Source: Ustilaginoidea virens (Eukaryota > Ascomycota > Sordariomycetes > Hypocreales > Clavicipitaceae). Taken from it: a DNA stretch of 64,000 bases. Below, piece after piece: positions 40,251 to 54,046 of the stretch; within the stretch, counting starts at the first letter, position 1, and every line of letters starts with the position of its first letter. A program made the position numbers and the translations under genes. Location: positions 4,206,001 to 4,270,000 of the forward strand of contig NC_057319.1 of assembly GCF_000687475.1 (NCBI RefSeq), read 5' to 3'. Below the pieces are notes generated by a model. That model searched no databases and was not told the origin of the DNA. It saw nothing but the letters and a program-made list of their open reading frames with translations.

Positions 40251-42790
40251 TCACAACTCCACGTCCGCGCTTTGGTGATTGCCATCGGTTGAGAGCAGAG
40301 ATATCGGTTCCCAAGTGTCGCCGTTGGAGCTGTTTCGCACCATGACACTGTACGCTTCGCGGCGCAGCAAAGAATGGCCCGGGGATATGGTTGAAGATTC
40401 CGACACGTTTGTGGTTTGAGAATCCGCTTCGAGATGGGATGCAAGAGCCTGGCTTGGATCGTCAGGCTCGTTGTGTGACAGCGTTTGCGACACGGAAACC
40501 GAGCAGTCGCCCCACTGAGCTGGAGAGTCCAGCCCATCTTGATTCCCAGATGTGGGCAATTCGCTTTCAGAGAGCAGGTTCGTGGTTGATATTGACAGCC
40601 TTGCCGGGAAAGCGTTTGGGGAGAGTTGCTTCGGGGCTGGCAGACCTGCTTCACAACCCGCGGCCTTTTCTGAAACAGGCTCATTCAGGCCCTTTTCAGC
40701 ATTGGCTGTCTCATGACTGCTTACCAGGCTTATTGTTTCGTGGCCGACGCTGGTTTGAGTGTCAAAGTCTGGTATCTGTTGTTGCCGGAAGCTTACCCCT
40801 TGCTCCTGGCTGAAAAGAGCTGCTCGCTGTTGGTCAAATTCGAAGATGGCTTCGGAGCAATACCTGCCGAACAGAGACCCAACACTCGCTCCTAGAAAGA
40901 TCTCACATGATTCAGGTCAGTCGGAGTTCCATCAGACTGCGACATCAAGGTCTGCCACGCACTGTTGCGTATCCACCACTGGTCGACTGTACACGGCCAG
41001 ACGTCCTTGGGCTGGAATGTTTGCGTGAGATGGCACAGCTCGCGGTAAGAAGAATGTCTCGCAAACGGGAATAGTATCACACTGGGCAACCCGTCGGCTC
41101 GTGGGCTGGCATGAGTCGCCTCGGTTCCCGTTGGCTCATGGCGCAAGCGTTCAAGGAGAGATTCCAGCGCAGCCGTCATGTCGGCAGATAGTTCGTCGTT
41201 GAATTCCTCAATGCCCATGTTCAAAGACAGATCTCGACCACTGGCTGCCATGTTTTTCAACACGACCGCGAGCTCCTGTTTCATTTGACCGTTTATTCCG
41301 CCACTTGCGGGTAGGCTGAAGGTTCTTCTCAGCTGACTGCAACTGTGTTTTCTTGTTGCCCAGAGTCGATCACTTACGAGGCAAGTAGCTCTTCGATGTC
41401 ATTGCTAGGAATCCAGTTTAAGGCAGCTTCGCGAGACAGATCCGTGCCACCTCCACCTACACCCACTTCCGCGACTGTTTGTCCGCTAGGGAGGCGACAC
41501 ACGACTGGTCGGATGGAAACCACGTCAGGGCCCATGGCAACGGGGCACATATTGGTCTTTTCACAACTATGTATGCGCACATTCTGTTCTGATGTGAGGC
41601 AGCCTTGATGCTGAGTATTACCACACATGTGACCATTCAAGGCAGCAATACCAACGGTATGGTGAAAGTCTGGCGAGTACGGGTCGTCTGACGTTCTACT
41701 TTTCAGTGACTGATATATTCGTAACTTGTACTGGTCCACGTGAATCTAAAGGTAGTTGGTGAACACGCATTTTTTATTTAAATTTCTTTTCTTTTTTATT
41801 TTGTTTTAATTTTTTTCTTTTAGAAAAATTCGAAGCAGAGTAAGGTGAGAACTTACAGGAGAATCGAGAGCTTTGGACAGCGCAACCCAAACCTCCTCGT
41901 ATCCAAACGTCCAAAAGGAAAAGTGAAAGACTGTGTTTGGAGGATACTTGATTACTTTCGTCAAAAGGTCAACAATACCTTCAGACTTTGTCTGGAATGG
42001 GACGTCTTCGAGGCATGAAGTATCCAGGTACATCTTATCTAGTCTTTTCAAGCCGGACGAGTACTCAAGAATCGCTGGATTCCGCGCAATCGAGGAGACA
42101 AACCATTGCTCAGCGCGAACGTCCCCGGTATACAGCACCGCTTTCCCCTGGCCTTCGATAACTGAAAGGCTCGAGTTATATACGCGTGAGGGGTTGCTCT
42201 AGTACACAAGGCGCTCATGACTTACGAAACATGGTAGAGCCGGGGCAGTGGTTGGCATCAAAGAGTGTGACTTGAATTTCGTATCCCGGGCGCAACTGTA
42301 GCCTCGTCGGAGCCTCCAAAGGAAGTGCTTTCTGCGCAAAAGAACTCAGCAAGACGACATCTGAGAGACGTAGTCGTTGAAGCATTGCATTTACCAGAAC
42401 CTTGCGCAGATGCTTATAAGTTTGCTGCCGGGCTTCAACGATTCCCCTTGCGTGGTTGATTCTGCAGGGGAACCTTTCCAGACGCAGCAAAATCTCTCTT
42501 GTGGCAAGGGAGCAGTAAACACTGCGTGAATCAGAAGAAAGAGCCGCCAGATGAATGGCAAGAGGTCATGACTTACAAGGGGGATCGCAGAGCGTCGAGA
42601 CCAGCCAGGTGGTCGCTGTGGACATGGCTCAAGAAGCAGGCTAATGGTGGCAGCTGGTCCGGGTTTCTCCTAAAGAAGTCGACTGCGGAAAAGCCTAGAT
42701 TAGATGAAGGACAAGTTAAAAGAGACGAGGTGATTCAAAAGTACTTCTGATTTCTGGAAATTCAGAAACGATGCCGTTGAATGTTGACAT
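40251..42790 (-). CDS. Artemis/SNM1-type DNA-repair metallo-beta-lactamase nuclease
   Basis: Eight exons on the minus strand: 42790-42745, 42682-42577, 42521-42395, 42331-42226, 42161-41857, 41745-41378, about 41336-40963 and 40891-40251, giving about 690 residues. Members of this family process hairpins, crosslinks or broken ends. The beta-CASP core is clear: CFLSHVHSDHLAGL with metal ligands H35, H37, D39 and H40; then [57 protein letters not shown] and FHFSFWTFGYEEVWVAL. The DRMBL-type region holds EVGVGGGGTDLSRE, then DVWPCTVD and SVGSLFGRYCSE. It starts at the nuclease fold with no N-terminal zinc finger, which favours Artemis over PSO2. The exon 5/6 acceptor is uncertain (41336 or 41342), and the intron there would be only 35-41 nt. 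Confidence 0.85.
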
Positions 42791-43732: not shown

Positions 43733-45896
43733 TCAGTCCAGATGTATTCTCCACAACTCTCTGTCACTTCCAGACAGGAAAGCACTTCTAGTGTGCAACG
43801 CCAAAGTATTGTCACTCAGGAGCAAATCCCCCTCCTTCCAAGCATGATAGTAGGCCACGCGCCTGTCACGTAGTGTCGAATTGATGGCCTCGCAGATGGC
43901 CTGGCTCGTTGCCTCGTCCTCATGGTCAATGCTCACACGAGTGGGGTCAAACTTGGTTTTGGACTGCGGCCACGGTTCGTGATATCGGAGGCACGGCCTC
44001 CCAGTGGTAGGGTGTGGCACAACCAGTGGCAAGCCTCTTAGCACAGCCGAGCCAAAACACGGCGTTGCTGCCGTCCAAGTCTTGGACGAGAGATCTTCCA
44101 CCGTCATCCACTTGGGGATATGCTTGAAAACCGCCGTCGATGACGAGAACAGGGTGTATCCCGAGTCCGGGGGGGACGGGGTGACGCCGGCGAAGAACTG
44201 GAACCTGAGGTTCGATAGTTAGCCCGGGGAAATACTCCCTCCCATTCGCTGCGGATTACCCAGGCAACTTACTTTGGGGGCAGAGAGGCTAGGATCTCTT
44301 CACCATTGTCGTCCACCCTTTTAGCAGTCTTGAAAAGGCCATCGTAGTGGAAAGGCATAAGTTCGGCACTCAGGGTGTTGTTCAACCCTCGAGAGTCTGA
44401 TCCTCGATCCTTAACCTCGAGAAGAAGACCGAAGCTCCATGGCTGTGGCTCGCCGACCTCCTTGGCTTTTTCTATGAACGCTTCCTTCTTTGGGGACTCG
44501 AAGAAGCCTCGCAAGACGACAGGGGAGTTTACTTCGGCCAGTGAGCGGACTTTCTTGGCATCTACGTCGTTGATCGAAAGTGTCGAAAGTGGTTCAGGTC
44601 CACCGGCGGGCCGAACCATCCACCCACAGGGGTAGATTGGCTCAAAGCTCACAGCGCCCTGGGCAAGATCCCAAGAGAATAGAGGCGACTTTTCGCGATA
44701 ATAGCTCGGAATCCCGTTTTCTGTCACGAGTTCGTATGTCGCATCGTTATCAAAGTCGGCCCTCATGCCAGACACGACAGTACCGTCCACCTTATAAGCC
44801 ACCGAGCAGTGCCAGGGCGTGGTGAAGGTCGTTTCTGTGGGAAGAAGACTGATTGGGATCTTGGTGGCGCCCGTAGATTGGTGAATGGACAGACGAACAT
44901 GGTCCTTGTACCTTTGTCGAACCGCGGTGGCAAATGCCTAGAATATATATACCATGGTGAGTCCCGCAGCGCCGGCAGCATCGGCAAGGAGGGAAATGCT
45001 CAACCTACATTTCCGCGAGCCATCATGTGCTTCGCAATGTATTCAACCCCCCGCTTGTACTTGGACTTGGTGCGCCCCTCTCGGAGAGGGTAGACGTCTG
45101 CAAGGTCGGTCTCGAGAAATTTGATATATCCCCGGTAAGTGAGGCAGACGTCTTCGACCTTGCTGACCTCTTTCCACTCCCAGTTTGGGTCAGCAAAGGT
45201 GTTTAGAAGCGCAAGGCGAAAGTTGGATGCGTTGGCGACATAGGTCATCTCGTCAAGTTGCTCGGGAAGAGGTACGGATACGAGATCCCGCAGCCGCGAG
45301 AACGCTATGCTAGTGAAGCGCTTGGCTTCCGCAACTTGCCGAAGAGCTTCTCCATAAGCCCACACATCTCTGTCTGGAACCCCAAGTAAATCTGCGCGCG
45401 TTGGTCGTTTCCTCTGTCAGCCGACGAGCGCCAAACTCCCAACACCGTCGGCAAGAGCGTCTTCTTCTTACTTACCGTTGTATACAAGGCCATCGGAGAT
45501 GATGGTGAGCGTGGCGCCAGGAGCATATACATCTCGGATGGCCATGCAAAGTCCATGGAGGTGAGACAAGGCCAGTTCTTCGGCCTTGTCGGGAAGTTTG
45601 CCGAGGACTTTTGTGGATCTGTTCGGCGATTTGAAGGGGAACGCAGGCAAGCACATGGGGATGGCTTGCCCAGCTCGTACGTGGCTATATATCGTAGCCA
45701 GAAACTTGAAAGTACCGTTGTCCGACTTGGCGGGATTATCGTGTGATGGTTGCAAGCGGTAACGATTGATGACACCCAAGATCTGGGCAGCGGTTCCCAG
45801 AGCAGAGATGTCCAACAAGGCTGGATCATTGTGCCTGCTGAAAGTCCCAAGATGATCGGCTGCTCTGCTTGGGAACTCTGAAACAGCGACCGACAT
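43733..45896 (-). CDS. Isocyanide synthase-dioxygenase fusion (DIT1/PvcA + TauD)
   Basis: Exons 45896-45476, 45391-45009, 44937-44273 and 44204-43733 give 646 residues. Residues about 20-340 are a DIT1/PvcA isocyanide synthase: LTIISDGLVYNDLLGVPD, RLSIHQSTGATKIPISLLP and HCSVAYKVDGTVVSGMRADF. This family converts an amino acid's amine to an isonitrile. Residues about 380-646 are a TauD-type Fe(II)/2-oxoglutarate dioxygenase: NSPVVLRGFF, MPFHYDGLF with H465 and D467, distal H627 in LALHTRS, and RELWRIHLD. In this pairing the dioxygenase normally desaturates or hydroxylates the isocyanide product. Fused enzymes of this order are known in fungi (Aspergillus fumigatus icsA type); yeast Dit1 has only the first domain. 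The nearest divergent neighbour is an FAD monooxygenase. The substrate cannot be told from sequence; the start is the first ATG before the conserved region, and an upstream in-frame ATG may exist. Confidence 0.9.
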
Positions 45897-48713
45897 GTTG
45901 CTGAGTCCGACAGGGGGGGGTTGTGTGAGAATGCAATGAGCTATCAACAAAGAATCGGTGCCACACCAGCAATATACTCAATTGTCAACGCGTGAATCGC
46001 TTTTGATGCTTCTCAAGACATTTCTGGTCATGGAGAAGCTGACTCCGAACCCTGTCAAGAGCCTGCTTTTTATACCTCGGCCCTGTCGACATCCAGCTGG
46101 AAACCCTTCTTTTTCTTCGACTTCTCAGCCTCGCTCCTTTCTCCTCCGCACCGCTGTCAGCATCCCACCAGGGACCAGTCAGTTCGTAACGACAAGGAAG
46201 GCCTTGATAATGGCCAAATCAGCAGGGATTGTGCTCGGTGGGATGATTGGGGATCCAGTCCTATAACCAAACCAGGCACCTAGGTACCGCAGCACGCGTC
46301 GCTACAGCCCACGACAGCCCCTCCCCTACTGGCTGCCGTCTGGTCGTAGTCGTTACTTGCGATGCGAGGCTGCAAGTCGCGGCCTCCTCAGATATACGGG
46401 GACAAGGTGCGGCACAATCAGCCTAACCTTGACACGCAATGCGCTAGCCTAGACTGGGTTCATACGTATCCGCCCCCGTTGTGGTCGCGTGCTTATAAAG
46501 ATCAGGAAGGTGTGCGCCTTTTCCTCATCTCATCCAAAGGGTCCGCCAACACGAGCTGCTGCTGCTCTTTACGCCGGCTACTAGTGGCAGCAGCAGCATC
46601 GCTGGAACTTACTCAGCGGCGATGCGATCACGACATTGACCTTTACTAGTAGCGGATCTTTTGTTGGGTTTATAGGGATACAAGCCGACGGCCAAACCCT
46701 GTCGTATCTTACAGTCATCGCACAAGAGTATGTGGGAAATAACTTACTCATCAAAGAACAGGCCTATTCTTGGGTGACCATGAATCGACCGCCTCCACGT
46801 GCCAGCCTGGATTGTGTGTTTATACGCTCAGTTCGTCATCCAATCGTCAAACAGCTAAATATTATCACAGGCATGCTTGCGAGAGGTCTCAGGATGAGCC
46901 TGTGACTAACACAAGGAACCAGCTGGGCCCAGGGAGGCGAAATGGGTCCCCCGAGGGTATTCTACACGTTGCAGTGGATTTCTCGACCCTATGCAAGGGT
47001 CAGTCACCAGTGACTGAATAGCGGGAAAAGAGCCGAGTTGTAGTTCCTCGGAAGAAGGAGGTGTGCCAAGTATCAGCATCATTGGCCGGAACCGCGAACC
47101 ATCCAGGGCAGACCTTTCAGGGCAGAAAGGGAGAGCGAGTCCAGATGATGCATAGAAATGGTGAGATGAGCCAACCAAGAGCTCAAGTGGCTAGGCCAAG
47201 CAACATGCGGAACACAGCATGCAGGCGACTGGACTGGCAAGCACCTGAAACCATTCTTTAGTTTTTCTCGGATTATTTCTGGATCGAACCTCGGGTCGCT
47301 GTTGCAGCAAATAAAGATAGCCCGTGTGCGCAAGAACGTTCGATTGTTGTTCGAGGTTGCGTCAAGGACTTGCCCAGTTTGTGCACCGGTCCGACGTCCC
47401 GAACATACCGCTGTTTCCCCACGCAGGAGAGGAAGCTCTACGGGGTTGGAGTCTTTTGCGTATCCATCAGCCTGTTGGCGCGGCTGCATGCATTTGCTAG
47501 CACTACCTGCTCAAGTAGGCCTAGGAGGTAGGTTGTTCGACGTTTGGCCCCGCTTCCATTGCCTGGCAGCAGCGGCTGCGCCAAGCTGGAGTGGCATCGT
47601 GATGCAAGTCCAGACTGACGTGCTTGCAGTAAGTCGAAAATGAGCTACTGCATGTGGGTTTTGCAGCTCTGATCTTGCATGGGACTTGGTTATTATCATC
47701 CGCCATCCTGGGCAGCAAAGGATGGGGGCGAGGAGAAACCGGAAAGCAGGTGAGTCGAGTCGCCCCGGAAAAGGCTGGCGGATGGGAGGTTGTTGATTAC
47801 GCGCGGCACCACCGTGTGTTGATGTCGTCTTCTGCCCCCCCAACTTAGCACCCTGCTTGGATAGTGCGGTTGTATAGGGGGTTTGGATGAAAGCTGTACA
47901 TGTGTTGTCTTCGCATTACTTCTGGGCCTGGTAAGAGAGTCGTCTTATAGCCCTGTGATGAAACCTGTCGGGGAATTTTTCTCTCTTCAAAGCTGCTTCG
48001 AGCTGGTTCGATCCCAATGGCCCGCCCTTGGACAGCGGCGCAACTCGCCAAGAGCAACAAACTCCGTCGTTCTCCATAGTATTGGCAACCCATGCATATG
48101 GAAAACTCGCAATCATCGTAGCATTGCTCAGACAATCGGTATTAAGGCATGGCTAGTAGCATTGATGCTATCGTTGTTGTTCGCACCGCTATAGCGATGT
48201 CGACATGTCCCAAGCAGCGGCTCTTTCAGCAGCATCAAGCATCGTCAACAGCTGACAACAGGCATTGACAGCGGGTCCGGCGGCGATAAGCGAGAGGGAT
48301 GGCCCGAAATCGCCCCAAATGGTTGGTACTTGGCAGATCGGCCTCGGATTGAAGGAGATTCGGGGCAGCGTCAACCTGGGGGCCGCTATCTGCCTAGAGG
48401 CGCTTTCGACGGAGTAATGATTAGTAAGAGCCGTCAAACCTTGAACAAGTGGCGCAAAACGTCCATGCATGGGATTTATTTAGTGCGACGCGGGCGTGTC
48501 AACGTTCCAGAATCTTGATCCTTCGTACGCGCTAGTCAGTTCTGAGCGATGAGGCTATACAGGGAGTACGGAGTAGGGTATCCAACTTTCTTCCACAATA
48601 GTGGCTGAACTGGCCATGGTCATATTTCATCCAAGAGAAAGGGGCCTCGCAAGCACTAGAAAAAAAAGGCGAGGGGGGGAGGGGAAGAAACGAGACTCCC
48701 CATCAACGATACG
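45897..48713. other. 2.8-kb spacer between ICS-dioxygenase and FAD monooxygenase genes
   Basis: This is the shared upstream region of two divergent genes. I found no convincing gene, tRNA or transposon signature. Short frames here lack codon regularity. A TACGGAGTA motif lies at 48567-48575 and a CACCTAGGTACCG motif near 46275-46287. There is one TGTGCTCG octamer at 46230. It is unusually long for a bidirectional promoter in this window. Confidence 0.5.
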
Positions 48714-50908
48714 ATGCATGCTGACAAGGACGTGGCAGTTGGCATCTTTACGACGGATGTCTGCATCATTGGCGGTATGTTTTGAATCCTGGTTATCAAC
48801 GCAAGACAAACCCTGATCTATCAAGGGAAATGCGGAGGAATCGAGCTGACAGTTGATAGGAGGACCGACTGGTCTCTTCACTGGCCTTTTGCTTCACCGA
48901 CTCGGAGTGTCCATCTGCGTTATAGGTTAGATTCAGTTTTGATGCAAGGAAAGGAATGGAAATCATGTATAAATCAGAACTGCTGGGACTAACTGACTTG
49001 GTTTCCAAGACGCCAAGCCTGGTCCACTCGAGTTAGGAAGAGCCGATGCGCTCAATGCGCGAACGCAGCAGTATCTTGAGGTAGCAGATTTGTTGGACGA
49101 GCTGCTCCCCGTCGGTCTCAAGTGCAACAGTAAGTAGGGACTTGAATACGCTCATACGCTCACATGGACGGATTGATCTTTCCTCAGTCTTCTTCATCAG
49201 TTTTCTTCCTCGCTTTTCTCACCTTCTTCTTCCATCCCAGCAAGCTCTACATTCGCGGAAGGAGAGTTCAAATCACGACAAAATGCATGGTGGGTTGGTC
49301 TGGAGCATGCCCTGCACAAAAACTTCCTCATGGTTGGGCAGCCAGTGATTGAGAAGATGCTGGCCAGTCGACTAGCAGGGCTGGTTAGGTTTGGTGAAGA
49401 AGTTGTCTCCATCACCGAGGACGAGAGCTCGGTCGAGGTCGTCACAGATTGCGGGCTTAAAGTGCGAAGCAAATACGCCGTAGGAAGCGACGGCGCTCGC
49501 TCCTTGGTCCGAAAGCAGATCGGGGCCGCGTTCACGGGCACCAAGCCCGAGATGCTGTGGGCTGTACTGGACACATTCATCGACACTGATTTCCCAGCGT
49601 GCCCGGAAATCATTACGTTTGAGCACAATGGACAATCGCGGGTGTCTTGGATTCCGCGAGAAAGAGGAATGTGCCGCTTCTATGTTCTTCTCGAGGGCCG
49701 CGTCAGCCAGGCTCTGGCTGAAGAGTCAATCAAGAAGCATCTGGCCCCGCACAGTGTCGAGTTTAAGAAGACGGAATGGTACAGCACGTTTGAAGGTGAG
49801 TCCATCAGAGTCCAGAGAAGCCGGAGGTAAAGTGGGTGGGGGATGAACCAGATGAGACTCGGGGAAGAAAGGGAAGAAAGGGAAGAAAAGGAAGATGAAG
49901 AAGAAGAAGAAGAAAAGGCCAAAAGAAAGGCAAGCTTTGGTCGTGATATGCCCCCGCTGACCGGTTCGGCATGGGCAGTCAAGGAGAGGATAGCCTCGAC
50001 GTTTGTGTCGAGAGACGGGGCCGGTCGCATCCTTCTCGCGGGGGACGCGGCTCATGTTCACTCGGTGAATGGCGGCCAAGGTCTCAACACGGGCATGTCT
50101 GATGCGTTTGGCCTGGCCTGGCGCCTGGCGACAGCCGTCAGCGACGCGCCGCAGCTGCAACGCGGGGCTGCAGAAACCATTCTCCGCAGCTACGACACAG
50201 AACGGCGAAGCATCGCTCGGGACGTGATTGACGTCGCAGCCCGGCTGGTTCGACATACCGTCCACACGGCCGAGCAGTACGTGGGCACCATCGAGAAGAA
50301 TGCCGGCTACATCACCGGTAAGGCAGCCAGCCAGCCCGCTAGACGATGGGCGGATAGAGAGAGCGAGGCTTCTTACCCCCCTCCCCCTTGCTCCCCCCTC
50401 CCTTTTTCTCGTCGCGCGATTTTTCGCTAACCAACCGGTGTGGCAAACATGAAAACTGCCAGGCATGGGCGTGACGTACAGCGAATCTGCTTCACCGCTG
50501 GTGAAAGCGTCAGAGCTCGGCCCGTGGAAGGCAGGCAATCGATGCCCAGACATGATCGTCGCGCATGCCGACGGCGGCGAGACCAGGTTGTACACGGAAG
50601 CATCGTACGGCAAGTACATTGTACTGCAGGTAGGAAAAGGCGAGGACGCCAGCGCCGACTTTGGATTCCGACATGTGGCAGAGATCTACCGCGTCGCACC
50701 GTCTACGGCAGCGAGAGCTGATTCTGGTTCTGCCACTGCTTCTGCTGCCACTGCTTCTGCCACCGGTCGAGACCGCCGGTACATTGCTGATTGGGTTGCG
50801 GGGGACCAAGCGTACTTTGTTGTCGTCCGACCCGACATGTACATTGGGTTTGTCGGCCGAGACAAGCTGGAAGCGCAGCAGTATCTGGCGGACTTGTACC
50901 TGACATAG
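48714..50908 (+). CDS. FAD-dependent aromatic-type monooxygenase (phenol hydroxylase-like)
   Basis: Exons 48714-48774, 48860-48925, 49010-49129, 49241-49795, 49979-50317 and 50463-50908 give 528 residues. A class A flavoprotein hydroxylase would use NADPH and O2. The dinucleotide fold CIIGGGPTGL has G20, G22 and G25. KYAVGSDGARSLVRKQIG is the DG motif, and GRILLAGDAAHVHSVNGGQGLNTGMSDAFGLAWRL holds the GD motif with D290. The C-terminal part, from GMGVTYSES to YLADLYLT, has the thioredoxin-like fold position of phenol 2-monooxygenases but with an Ala/Ser/Thr-rich insert. It is shorter than the roughly 600-650 residues usual for the family. The intron at 49796-49978 is purine-rich (GAAGAAGAA). 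Divergent from the ICS-dioxygenase gene, it may oxidise an isocyanide or aromatic intermediate; that is inference. Confidence 0.85.
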
Positions 50909-51718: not shown

Positions 51719-52637
51719 TTATTGACAACAGTCACCGTTGCCGTCGTCGCCGTCATCGCCGTCGTGGCACGGCGGTGGTTTCTCTCCTCCTTCGTCGCCA
51801 CCCGCCTCCCCATCCTCCTCTAATTGTATCTGGACAGCCGCATGTCCCTGGCTATAAAGTCCCTCTGTCGCAACAATCTGATAATCATGCGTACCGAGTG
51901 GCATGCCCATCGACTTCCAAGCATTGAAGTGGTTTCCAATCGTGACTTTTCCGCTGCTAGACTTTTCGCGTCGGACTGACCAGTACTGCGGAAAGGTTCT
52001 GGTGCCCTTGATGGAAGGGGCGTTCACACGCAATGCCTGATAGACGTCGTAGACGGATCCATCGGACTCGAATTCACCCATTTTCTTAGCCCCTTTCGCC
52101 GGGTTGTATTTACCGAAGTTTTCCAAAATGTAGTATTCCCTGACGTGTTCACCCTTGGTCCAGCCGTATAGAGACAAGTAGCTGGTGCCGTCGGAGGTGA
52201 AGTTGGCCGAGTACGAGATTGCACTGTTTTGTTCGTTGGGCATCCCCCCCCCACCGCCCCCAAAAGTAAGCAATGTGTCCGTCTTTGCGTGCAACGGGAG
52301 AAAAGGAGGAAGATTTGGTGCGTAGGTTCTGTGCTGAGGAGGAGAGACTGGTGCTTAAGAGATCCTTGTTCGGGATGATGCATGTTTCATACCCTGATGT
52401 GCCCGGATTTCTGCCCACTCCAGCGACAAAGTTGCCGCCGGATGACCAAGAGACCTCGTAACTTCCAGAATCGCCGTTTTTATACACCACGTCTTGGTAG
52501 TCTCTCCAGAAGGAGTAATAGTAGCCGTGGCGGTAACCACCCTGAATGGCGCGCTCAGCAAGGCGAGGCGCGGGAGACGGCGCAGCCAAGATGCCGCCGG
52601 CCCCAAGCTGAAGCGCGAGAATAGCCTCAAGACGCAT
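51719..52637 (-). CDS. Secreted GH11 endo-1,4-beta-xylanase with acidic Cys-ended tail
   Basis: Exons 52637-52393 and 52223-51719 give 249 residues. GH11 enzymes cut xylan backbones outside the cell. An N-terminal signal peptide is visible (MRLEAILALQLGAGGILAA, cleavage near 19-20). The jelly-roll core reads YYYSFWRDYQDVVYKNGDSGSYEVSW, YLSLYGW, EYYILENFG, FPQYWSVRR and HFNAWKSMGMPLG. The nucleophile is E111 in the EYYI strand and the acid/base is E202 in the VATEG strand. The join GTSG-AISYSAN uses donor GTATGA and acceptor AACAG; the intron contains a long G tract. Residues 217-249 form an unusual acidic tail (Glu/Asp/Gly with a PPPC element) ending CCQ, not found in standard short GH11 enzymes. 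Confidence 0.9.
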
Positions 52638-54046
52638 GATCTGCTGTCAAGACGCAAAGGAGGACCTTGGCCTGGTATGAACCTGTCATGTATGAGATGG
52701 CAGCTGCCCTTCGCCTTTGAAAACAGGAACGCGAAGCTGGAGTTGGCGTGTGTCGCGGGAAACCGTCTCCGGTATTAAATAATCTTTCCCTGCCCGCGAT
52801 TGATTTGCTGTTTCACCGTGACAGATTCATCTCGGTCCCTTTTTGATAATCTGCCAGCCCCTCTGCCTCGGTTCGTTACTTCAGTTCTCCCCTGAAACCA
52901 AGGCTTGATTGAAACCTTGTTCGCGGGGTAAGAAGGACACGCGAGGATTTTTTCTCATCAATTCATGTCATGCCTGCGGGGAATAGCTTATAGATTTTCC
53001 ACTGAGAGGCAAGGGTATGATGTCTTGCAGTAGTCCATTGAACCCATCATCTCTTATAGGGCACCTTGAAAGTGTTCATAGATTGTATTCCCACAAGGCC
53101 TCTGGCTGACGGGGTGTTTCAGAATCCCGTGGGATTTCGGATTCCGGCTGCTCATGTCGGAAGAATTACATCAACTTCATGCTTTCCCCGGGTAGTCGTT
53201 GAAACGAGTCTTGATCCGTGGCCGGCAGGGTTTTGGTCAAACCAGACTCGAACAGAAAGACTCGATGGATACATTGATGAATCCACCAGCAGAGCACATA
53301 TCCTGCTGGCACCCAGAGTTACAGTGCAGTGCTGTGCTGTGCTGTGCTGTGCCGTGCCGTGCTGTGCTGTGCTGTGCCGTGCCGTGCTGTGCTGTGCTGG
53401 CAGCCTCCAAAGCCCCGGGACAGCCACTCGGCCGGGTAAGGTCTGGTGTCAATGCATTGCTGACAAAAGCAGCGCGTTTTTGAGCGATTTAAAGTCCGTC
53501 CCTGACAGGCTCATTAGTTTTAGTTTAACCATTGCCTCCAATTAAGCACCTTTGACGCCAAGAATTTGGACCAAAGGAAGAATATATGCATACCGCGGAA
53601 CTACATTAAATATCCTGAGGGCTGGCCAGCTAGCCTTAAGCAGTATAGCGCCAACACCGCGCAGTGAGAAGAGACTACTCCGTACTTGTTAATGCGTTTG
53701 CTTGCAATAGCCAATCGGCAGGCCGGCGCAAAGCATAGCTCTTTGGCAGTAGTACTAAGTTTCTCCTCGGTGAGATTGCGCATCCCAGTGAGTTGACCGC
53801 ATAAAGTAGAGACGAAGAGGAGATATATACACACGCACGTGTATGTAGATAGATGGAATGGAATGAATCCAACCGACAATCTACCAGGGCGTCATTACGA
53901 CCTACAGTCCAATCCTAACCAGCCGTGCCTCTGCTGAGATTTGTCCGCGATGCGAAGACTTTGCTTTGCGCTCCTCCTTGGCCACGTCATGAAACCACGC
54001 ATGACGCATCCTCCGATTCTTGCCATGGAGCCGAGGGCGCCAAACC
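52638..54046. other. Gene-poor spacer with pentanucleotide array
   Basis: Contains the xylanase upstream region, the GCTGT/GCCGT array and a TACTCCGTA motif at 53676-53684. No gene is recognised. Confidence 0.55.
53325..53399. repeat. GCTGT/GCCGT pentanucleotide array
   Basis: About fifteen tandem 5-bp units, GCTGT with interspersed GCCGT variants. The CT/CC variants occur in pairs, indicating duplication of a larger block. Confidence 0.9.

What the first reader, a model, noticed from the sequence alone, without database searches (positions are those of the whole stretch)
43733..45896. Isocyanide synthase fused to a TauD-type dioxygenase
Seen: one spliced 646-residue frame carries DIT1/PvcA motifs (SDGLVYND, RLSIHQS, DGTVVSGMRADF) followed by a complete Fe(II)/2-oxoglutarate dioxygenase triad (H465, D467, H627). 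Known: such fusions are isocyanide natural-product enzymes in fungi. Inferred: this genome makes an isonitrile, possibly a copper- or metal-binding metabolite. The neighbours are not those of the well-known xanthocillin locus, so the product may be new.
Basis: partly seen in the sequence, partly recalled or inferred. Interest (0 to 1): 0.8.

Follow-up and report, generated by a model that had tools for sequence, protein, structure and literature searches.

The report
Isocyanide synthase-desaturase fusion with flavin partner
The rice false smut fungus carries an intact-looking gene for a known kind of two-part enzyme expected to turn tyrosine into a reactive isocyanide, and it sits beside a flavin enzyme gene that travels with it through many other fungi, which points to a small, little-studied two-gene pathway.

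Summary
A four-exon minus-strand gene (45896..43733) encodes 646 residues with a near full-length isocyanide synthase domain (PF05141, E 1.4e-97) and TauD-type Fe/2-oxoglutarate domain (PF02668, E 1.6e-23). The genome is Ustilaginoidea virens; the deposited model UVI_02045310 lacks the first 188 residues. The fusion is a known architecture ("ICS-TauD", 36.2% of fungal ICS proteins in one survey). Orthologues sampled are 55-72% identical. Catalytic residues are kept, and the dioxygenase half has both residues that mark PIsnB-type (vinyl isonitrile-forming) enzymes. Among the top 120 homologues of each, 43 ICS/FAD pairs share a contig length (against 5 ICS/Artemis pairs for the gene on the other side), and 15 of 15 shared locus-tag prefixes show adjacent tags. 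Best reading: L-tyrosine to tyrosine isonitrile to hydroxystyryl isocyanide in one protein, then ring oxidation, perhaps to a catechol, by the flavin enzyme. Chemistry and any copper role are inferred. The enzyme is a new member of a known kind; the conserved pair deserves follow-up. My searches found no description of it; the survey's figures and supplements were not seen.

The parts
43733..45896 (-). ICS-TauD fusion gene, 4 exons (45896-45476, 45391-45009, 44937-44273, 44204-43733), 646 aa
   Evidence: splice model; PF05141 and PF02668; homologues; alignment
44728..45692 (-). isocyanide synthase domain, residues 69-338 (span includes introns 1 and 2)
   Evidence: PF05141 E 1.4e-97; PvcA 3e59 E 9.4e-33 and PIsnA 9dhm/9dh4; coordinates
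43745..44577 (-). TauD-type Fe/2OG domain, residues 389-643 (span includes intron 3), triad H465/D467/H627, PIsnB-type markers K471 and H565
   Evidence: PF02668 E 1.6e-23; PIsnB 7tcl E 3.1e-18, PvcB 3eat E 1.9e-15; marker rule; coordinates
48714..50908 (+). FAD-dependent aromatic hydroxylase gene (group A type, class name recalled), 6 exons: 48714-48774, 48860-48925, 49010-49129, about 49262-49795 (5' edge of exon 4 uncertain), 49979-50317, 50463-50908
   Evidence: PF01494 on two ORFs and a below-cut-off Rng_hyd_C match; exons against P0121; splice model; linkage
45897..48713 (.). 2.8 kb divergent intergenic region between the two genes; one ORF in it (47170-47640) was scanned without a Pfam hit, smaller ORFs were not scanned
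40895..42790 (-). SNM1/Artemis-like DNA repair metallo-beta-lactamase gene directly downstream; a locus landmark, not part of the pathway (3' end uncertain)
   Evidence: tblastn with the C-terminal part of P0005; homologues named artemis; weak DRMBL match

Best explanation
The gene encodes a bifunctional ICS-TauD enzyme. Its N-terminal half condenses an aromatic amino acid, most likely L-tyrosine, with ribulose-5-phosphate to tyrosine isonitrile. Its C-terminal Fe/2OG half, of PIsnB type, then performs decarboxylating desaturation to a 4-hydroxystyryl (vinyl) isocyanide. The divergently transcribed flavin hydroxylase 2.8 kb away is its conserved pathway partner and oxidises the phenol ring, most simply to a catechol. 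Shown here: open spliced frame, domains, catalytic residues, PIsnB-type markers, open spliced partner gene, conserved linkage. Inferred: substrate, products, order of steps, expression and biological role.
For: Domains and motifs. The ICS half matches PvcA and PIsnA, the TauD half matches PIsnB first and PvcB second, by sequence and by the fold of the Conoideocrella orthologue P0001 (mean pLDDT 84.7; 3e59 TMt 0.87, 9dh4 PIsnA with L-tyrosine 0.86, 7tcl PIsnB with tyrosine isonitrile 0.80, 3eat PvcB 0.77). Metal ligands and carboxylate-anchor residues (W435, G468, R642, equivalent to PIsnB W74, G104, R265) are kept. K471 and H565 fit the published PIsnB-type rule (K/R and N/H) rather than the PvcB type (L and C). 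In 120 aligned proteins K89, H287, W310, H311, H465, D467, G468 and H565 are 120/120, and H627 is 118/120. Control: the same comparison with the Artemis-like gene on the other side, also 120 by 120 rows, gives 5 shared lengths. ICS and FAD distances correlate, r=0.92 over 47 taxa, 0 of 999 permutations as high. PDB relatives of the partner's orthologue P0121 are VibO, then rifampin monooxygenases, 3-hydroxybenzoate hydroxylase and phenol hydroxylases, which mostly act on phenols (recalled). Bacterial parallel: in 10 of 10 fetched loci of the genus of L009 (Pectobacterium) a flavin hydroxylase 40-44% identical to P0121 lies beside a TauD gene; the one read in full has the PvcB-type markers.
Against: No activity, transcript or metabolite was examined. 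The PIsnB/PvcB marker rule is correlative: single mutations at both sites did not change the product. The substrate could be Trp or another amino acid. The mirror-tree correlation also follows from shared species history. Linkage rests on contig lengths and tag numbers, not on gene-order tables; 14 of the 15 tag prefixes are from Hypocreales (order recalled). The U. virens ICS branch is long (0.41 against a median of 0.10), although only 4 of 182 strongly conserved columns changed, none of the residues named here. The partner could do para- or ipso-hydroxylation or epoxidation rather than ortho-hydroxylation; a rifampin monooxygenase is its second PDB hit. In the bacterial parallel no isocyanide synthase is adjacent: in 11 of 11 genomes with the FAD hit it lies on another contig (3) or 0.31-0.46 Mb away (8).
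Confidence: 0.6

Rival explanations
1. The ICS-TauD protein works as described, but the flavin hydroxylase is only a chance or regulatory neighbour with an unrelated job.
For: Adjacency alone does not prove a shared pathway; no joint expression data. A clade of 10 listed ICS-TauD proteins shows no linked FAD homologue in the top 120 list.
Against: All 15 shared tag prefixes (14 Hypocreales and Neoarthrinium, orders recalled) have an adjacent pair and 43 pairs share a contig length; the Artemis-like neighbour on the other side gives only 5 shared lengths among the same numbers of rows, with adjacent tags in Epichloe bromicola, far-apart tags in Fusarium culmorum and a fused gene model in Tolypocladium. 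A homologous FAD gene also lies beside a TauD in 10 of 10 bacterial loci.
Confidence: 0.15
2. The fusion makes a vinyl isocyanide that is then dimerised as in xanthocillin; the locus is a rearranged xan pathway.
For: Same domain architecture as XanB, PIsnB-type markers; the xan ICS is nested in another ICS-TauD family in the survey.
Against: None of the 20 ORFs scanned at 34.1-64 kb is a P450, isocyanide hydratase or transporter; the conserved partner is a flavin hydroxylase. XanB itself could not be fetched for a direct comparison.
Confidence: 0.1
3. The gene makes an N-formyl tyrosine or dityrosine precursor for spore walls, as Dit1 does.
For: Several homologues are named 'Spore wall maturation protein DIT1'.
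Against: The genome has another ICS on contig C3 with a divergent P450 next to it, the dit arrangement; a fragment of it is only 37% identical over 105 residues to the Conoideocrella ICS-TauD P0001 (not compared with the U. virens protein itself). Lim 2018 lists Dit1 as single-domain.
Confidence: 0.05
4. The U. virens copy is decaying and no longer functional.
For: Long terminal branch.
Against: Open frame, canonical splice sites, residues named here kept, only 4 of 182 conserved columns changed, fewer than in 14 of the other 119 proteins though above the median of 1; partner gene also open.
Confidence: 0.05

Closest known systems
ICS-DOX / ICS-TauD proteins (A. fumigatus XanB, IcsB; V. cholerae IsnAB; Lim et al. 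2018 PMC5974471, passages and section 6 seen)
   Same: one polypeptide with PF05141 and PF02668, conserved active-site residues
PIsnA + PIsnB (rhabduscin pathway; PMC9467999, passages and section 12 seen)
   Same: tyrosine isonitrile then vinyl isonitrile logic; PIsnB-type marker residues
   Different: separate proteins in bacteria; rhabduscin is then glycosylated (recalled), here a flavin hydroxylase
PvcA + PvcB + PvcC (paerucumarin pathway, P. aeruginosa)
   Same: ICS, Fe/2OG desaturase and an aromatic hydroxylase acting together (role of PvcC recalled)
   Different: the TauD half has PIsnB-type, not PvcB-type, markers; PvcC belongs to another hydroxylase family (recalled)
Gene cluster family 6 of Nickles et al. 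2023 (PMC10153163, preprint; passages and sections 20, 21 seen)
   Same: ICS-TauD backbone, widespread in Ascomycota
   Different: identity with this locus not established; the main text has no hit for FAD, flavin, monooxygenase or hydroxylase, figures and supplements not seen

Membership tests
ICS-TauD (ICS-DOX) | PF05141 and PF02668 on one open frame | tested here: met
ICS-TauD (ICS-DOX) | ICS core residues conserved with PvcA/PIsnA | tested here: met
   alignments; K89, H287, W310, H311 in 120/120 (which of these are catalytic was not established here)
ICS-TauD (ICS-DOX) | HxD...H iron triad and carboxylate anchor | tested here: met
ICS-TauD (ICS-DOX) | isonitrile product | not testable with these tools
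   needs enzyme assay or metabolomics
PIsnB-type (vinyl isonitrile forming) desaturase | K/R at PIsnB 107 and N/H at PIsnB 188 | tested here: met
   K471 and H565 alignment; rule: K 115 and R 3 of 120, H 120 of 120
xan (xanthocillin) cluster | P450, ThiJ/PfpI, transporter and regulator neighbours | tested here: not met
   none among 20 ORFs scanned at 34.1-64 kb; only larger ORFs were scanned
dit cluster | single-domain ICS beside a P450 | tested here: not met
   this gene has a TauD half and a flavin hydroxylase neighbour; the C3 ICS has a divergent P450 beside it
crm (ICS-NRPS-like) | AMP-binding and transferase domains on the ICS protein | tested here: not met
   one search shows two domains only
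Nickles GCF 6 | same gene content as that cluster family | tested here: inconclusive
   text seen does not list its genes
group A flavoprotein aromatic hydroxylase (partner) | PF01494 with GxGxxG, DG and GD motifs (motif names recalled) | tested here: met
   PF01494 on ORFs of the gene and its homologues; IIGGGPTGL, SDGARSLVR, LAGDAAHVHSVNGGQGLN in the model

The most novel reading that the evidence does not exclude
An undescribed two-gene pathway, an ICS-desaturase fusion plus a group A flavin hydroxylase, has been kept together through much of the Sordariomycetes and makes a catechol-bearing vinyl isocyanide: one small molecule with two metal-binding ends that could take copper or block phenol oxidases of hosts and competitors. 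Its spread through insect, plant and fungal parasites as well as saprotrophs would make it a core, not a niche, metabolite.
Probability: 0.3. Interest if true: 0.75.

Novelty: new member of a known kind. Interest (0 to 1): 0.45.

Why it matters
ICS-TauD enzymes are about a third of fungal isocyanide synthases, yet the 2023 survey names only three characterised fungal ICS clusters (xan, crm, dit). A compact pair conserved in dozens of genomes, some of them laboratory fungi such as Trichoderma, gives a directly testable route to one of the uncharacterised products. The truncated public gene model in U. virens may be one reason why the gene was overlooked there.

Tried and rejected
Search of bacterial and archaeal genomes with the U. 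virens protein found no relative. With alignment A2 it gave three distant loci, which led to the Pectobacterium parallel. The idea that the fungal trio (ICS, TauD, FAD) is an intact bacterial operon was tested and not met: in 369 genomes of the class, ICS at E 1e-10 occurs in 4 and the FAD family at E 1e-60 in 1; in 25 genomes of the genus, ICS in 23 and FAD in 11, 10 of these over the cut-off, and in those 11 genomes the two are never adjacent. The three other class genomes with ICS carry ICS, TauD and a P450 instead. In 295 genomes of the order the FAD family at E 1e-150 was found only in the starting genome; one partial plasmid relative, 42% over 75%, in Burkholderia. Copper motif scan: no enrichment. 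Structure of the spliced U. virens protein was not attempted; the Conoideocrella orthologue was used. Paper searches for the gene pair or the U. virens gene gave nothing specific; searches on ICS structures, Trichoderma isonitriles and rhabduscin added little.

Full report
What is there. The window (64 kb, contig C4 of a 37.2 Mb, 8-contig assembly) holds on its minus strand a four-exon gene, 45896..43733, with GT..AG introns of 84, 71 and 68 nt and a 646-residue product. Pfam gives DIT1_PvcA over residues 69-338 and TauD over 389-643, and nothing else up to E=1. The organism is Ustilaginoidea virens: the deposited protein UVI_02045310 is 100% identical but only 458 residues long and starts at residue 189 of this model, so it lacks 120 of the 270 residues of the synthase domain, including SDGLVYND.

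Both halves look active. Against solved structures the first half matches PvcA (E 9.4e-33) and PIsnA, the second PIsnB (3.1e-18) and PvcB (1.9e-15). Counting along that alignment, the PIsnB metal ligands H101, D103, H250 fall on H465, D467, H627; the residues that hold the substrate carboxylate (R265, W74, G104) on R642, W435, G468. Two positions reported to separate vinyl isonitrile formers (K/R and N/H) from isocyanoacrylate formers (L and C) carry K471 and H565, the vinyl type; the same paper says that single swaps did not change the product, so this is a correlation (section 12 of PMC9467999 and passages seen). An AlphaFold2 model of the Conoideocrella orthologue (mean pLDDT 84.7) matches PvcA, PIsnA, PIsnB and PvcB first among solved structures.

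The family. 605 proteins passed E 1e-3 and 120 were listed; identity of the query to a sample of 21 is 55-72%. In an alignment of 120 proteins (119 listed homologues without P0003, plus the query) K89, H287, W310, H311, H465, D467, G468 and H565 never vary and H627 is kept in 118. The U. virens protein groups with Metarhizium, Epichloe and Conoideocrella (support 0.999) on a long branch (0.41, median 0.10); it departs from 4 of 182 columns that are at least 95% conserved (median of all proteins 1). The gene is most simply explained by vertical descent and is not special to this genome. Fungal ICS-dioxygenase fusions are described in Lim et al. 2018 (PMC5974471; passages and section 6 seen), make up 36.2% of ICS proteins in Nickles et al. 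2023 (PMC10153163, preprint version; passages and sections 20, 21 seen), and one is noted in Metarhizium brunneum (PMC11457142, passages).

The partner. Between 48714 and 50908, divergent from the synthase gene, lies a six-exon flavin aromatic hydroxylase gene with an open spliced frame (the 5' edge of exon 4 is uncertain). Its homologues were listed (1193 hits, 120 shown) and compared with the ICS-TauD list. Fifteen locus-tag prefixes occur in both lists and all 15 have an adjacent pair (for Cosmosporella, tags that step by 10, taken as consecutive); Hirsutella has a second pair 7 tags apart, and Neonectria a second ICS-TauD without a listed neighbour. Fourteen of the 15 prefixes are from Hypocreales and one from Neoarthrinium; the shared contig lengths add Colletotrichum, Verticillium, Plectosphaerella, Discula, Daldinia, Hypoxylon and others (orders recalled). 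As a control, the gene on the other side, an Artemis-like repair gene, gives 5 shared contig lengths with the ICS list (120 by 120 rows); it is adjacent by tag in Epichloe bromicola and by a fused model in Tolypocladium capitatum, but far away in Fusarium culmorum. ICS and FAD distances over 47 taxa correlate with r=0.92, no permutation of 999 as high, which fits joint descent but would also arise from species history. Ten listed ICS-TauD proteins form a clade without a listed FAD partner, so the pairing may be particular to one branch; the FAD list was cut at 120, so this is not firm.

A bacterial echo. The NCBIfam model nearest the fungal flavin enzyme (P0121 scanned) is NF005531 (E 6.9e-121, 404 bits, below its cut-off of 530). 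Pectobacterium (named record of L009, genome G001) carries a member over the cut-off, 40% identical to P0121, directly after a TauD gene whose sequence carries the PvcB-type markers, within a run of DltD-, DltB- and DltA-like genes. All 10 loci of that genus fetched for this family have a TauD match beside the FAD gene. No synthase is next to it: in the 11 genomes of the genus with a FAD hit the synthase is on another contig (3) or 0.31-0.46 Mb away (8). Thus desaturase and flavin hydroxylase pair up in bacteria too, which strengthens a functional tie between these two activities, though not an identical pathway.

Neighbourhood. The ORFs with Pfam hits at 34-64 kb, besides the pair, are an eIF2B epsilon hexapeptide domain, DEAD helicase, Artemis-like, GH11 xylanase, chaperonin, HBS1-like GTPase and an NAD-GH match at the window's end (20 ORFs scanned). 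No P450, transporter, isocyanide hydratase or regulator was among them; a Zn2Cys6 ORF at 7.7-8.7 kb is 35 kb away (10 further ORFs). Smaller ORFs were not scanned. A second ICS lies on contig C3 with a divergent P450 and an ATG22-like transporter gene beside it: the dit arrangement (ICS with a P450), which leaves the C4 gene for another product.

Mechanism and what is not shown. The most likely course is L-Tyr plus ribulose-5-phosphate to tyrosine isonitrile, decarboxylating desaturation to 4-hydroxystyryl isocyanide in the same protein, then ring hydroxylation by the flavin enzyme, perhaps to a catechol as PvcC does in Pseudomonas (PvcC recalled, not read). The residue evidence supports the second step. 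For the third, the PDB relatives are VibO, rifampin monooxygenases, 3-hydroxybenzoate and phenol hydroxylases, which fits a phenolic substrate but does not fix the position. The substrate of the first step is inferred from PIsnA and PvcA. No transcript, protein or metabolite was examined. The copper idea rests on xan and crm in Aspergillus; a Mac1-like motif is at chance level here.

Novelty. The fusion itself is known. I found no paper describing the ICS-TauD plus flavin hydroxylase pair in searches (listings), and the survey's main text has no hit for FAD, flavin, monooxygenase or hydroxylase; but its figures and supplements were not seen and the journal version is not held, and its widespread 'GCF 6' may be this locus. 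I therefore file the enzyme as a new member of a known kind and carry the pair as the novel case.

Noticed in passing
G000:C3:3460154-3461519 (L008:4655-6020): Second isocyanide synthase (PF05141 pieces only) with a divergent P450 and an ATG22-like transporter gene beside it: looks like a dit1/dit2 cluster in a filamentous fungus.
   Followed up: partly
window 43733-45896: Deposited gene model UVI_02045310 (458 aa) is truncated at the N-terminus by 188 residues and misses 120 of the 270 residues of the synthase domain.
   Followed up: yes
L020:3547-10151 (Pectobacterium genome G001): Run of DltD-, DltB-, DltA-like, PvcB-like TauD and flavin hydroxylase genes without an adjacent isocyanide synthase; TauD-FAD adjacency seen in 10 of 10 fetched loci of the genus. 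A PvcB-type desaturase next to amino acid activation genes is odd; it may act on carrier-bound tyrosine.
   Followed up: partly
L017, L018, L019: Three bacterial ICS loci with ICS, TauD and a P450 as third gene (NCBIfam best match for the two scanned: cyclodipeptide synthase-associated P450, below cut-off).
   Followed up: partly
P0005 (Tolypocladium capitatum): Annotated 1102-residue protein looks like a false fusion of ICS-TauD with the downstream Artemis-like gene.
   Followed up: yes
ICS tree clade P0112, P0117, P0115, P0113, P0107, P0111, P0094, P0098, P0101, P0100: Well-supported ICS-TauD clade with no FAD partner among the listed homologues; Neonectria ditissima and a Trichoderma viride genome hold both kinds.
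   Followed up: partly
window 51722-52354: GH11 xylanase ORF (minus) just beyond the flavin hydroxylase.
   Followed up: no
window 53324-53399: GTGCT pentanucleotide array, 15 copies.
   Followed up: no
window 49862-49916: Purine-rich GGGAAGAAA-type repeat inside the fourth intron of the flavin hydroxylase gene.
   Followed up: no
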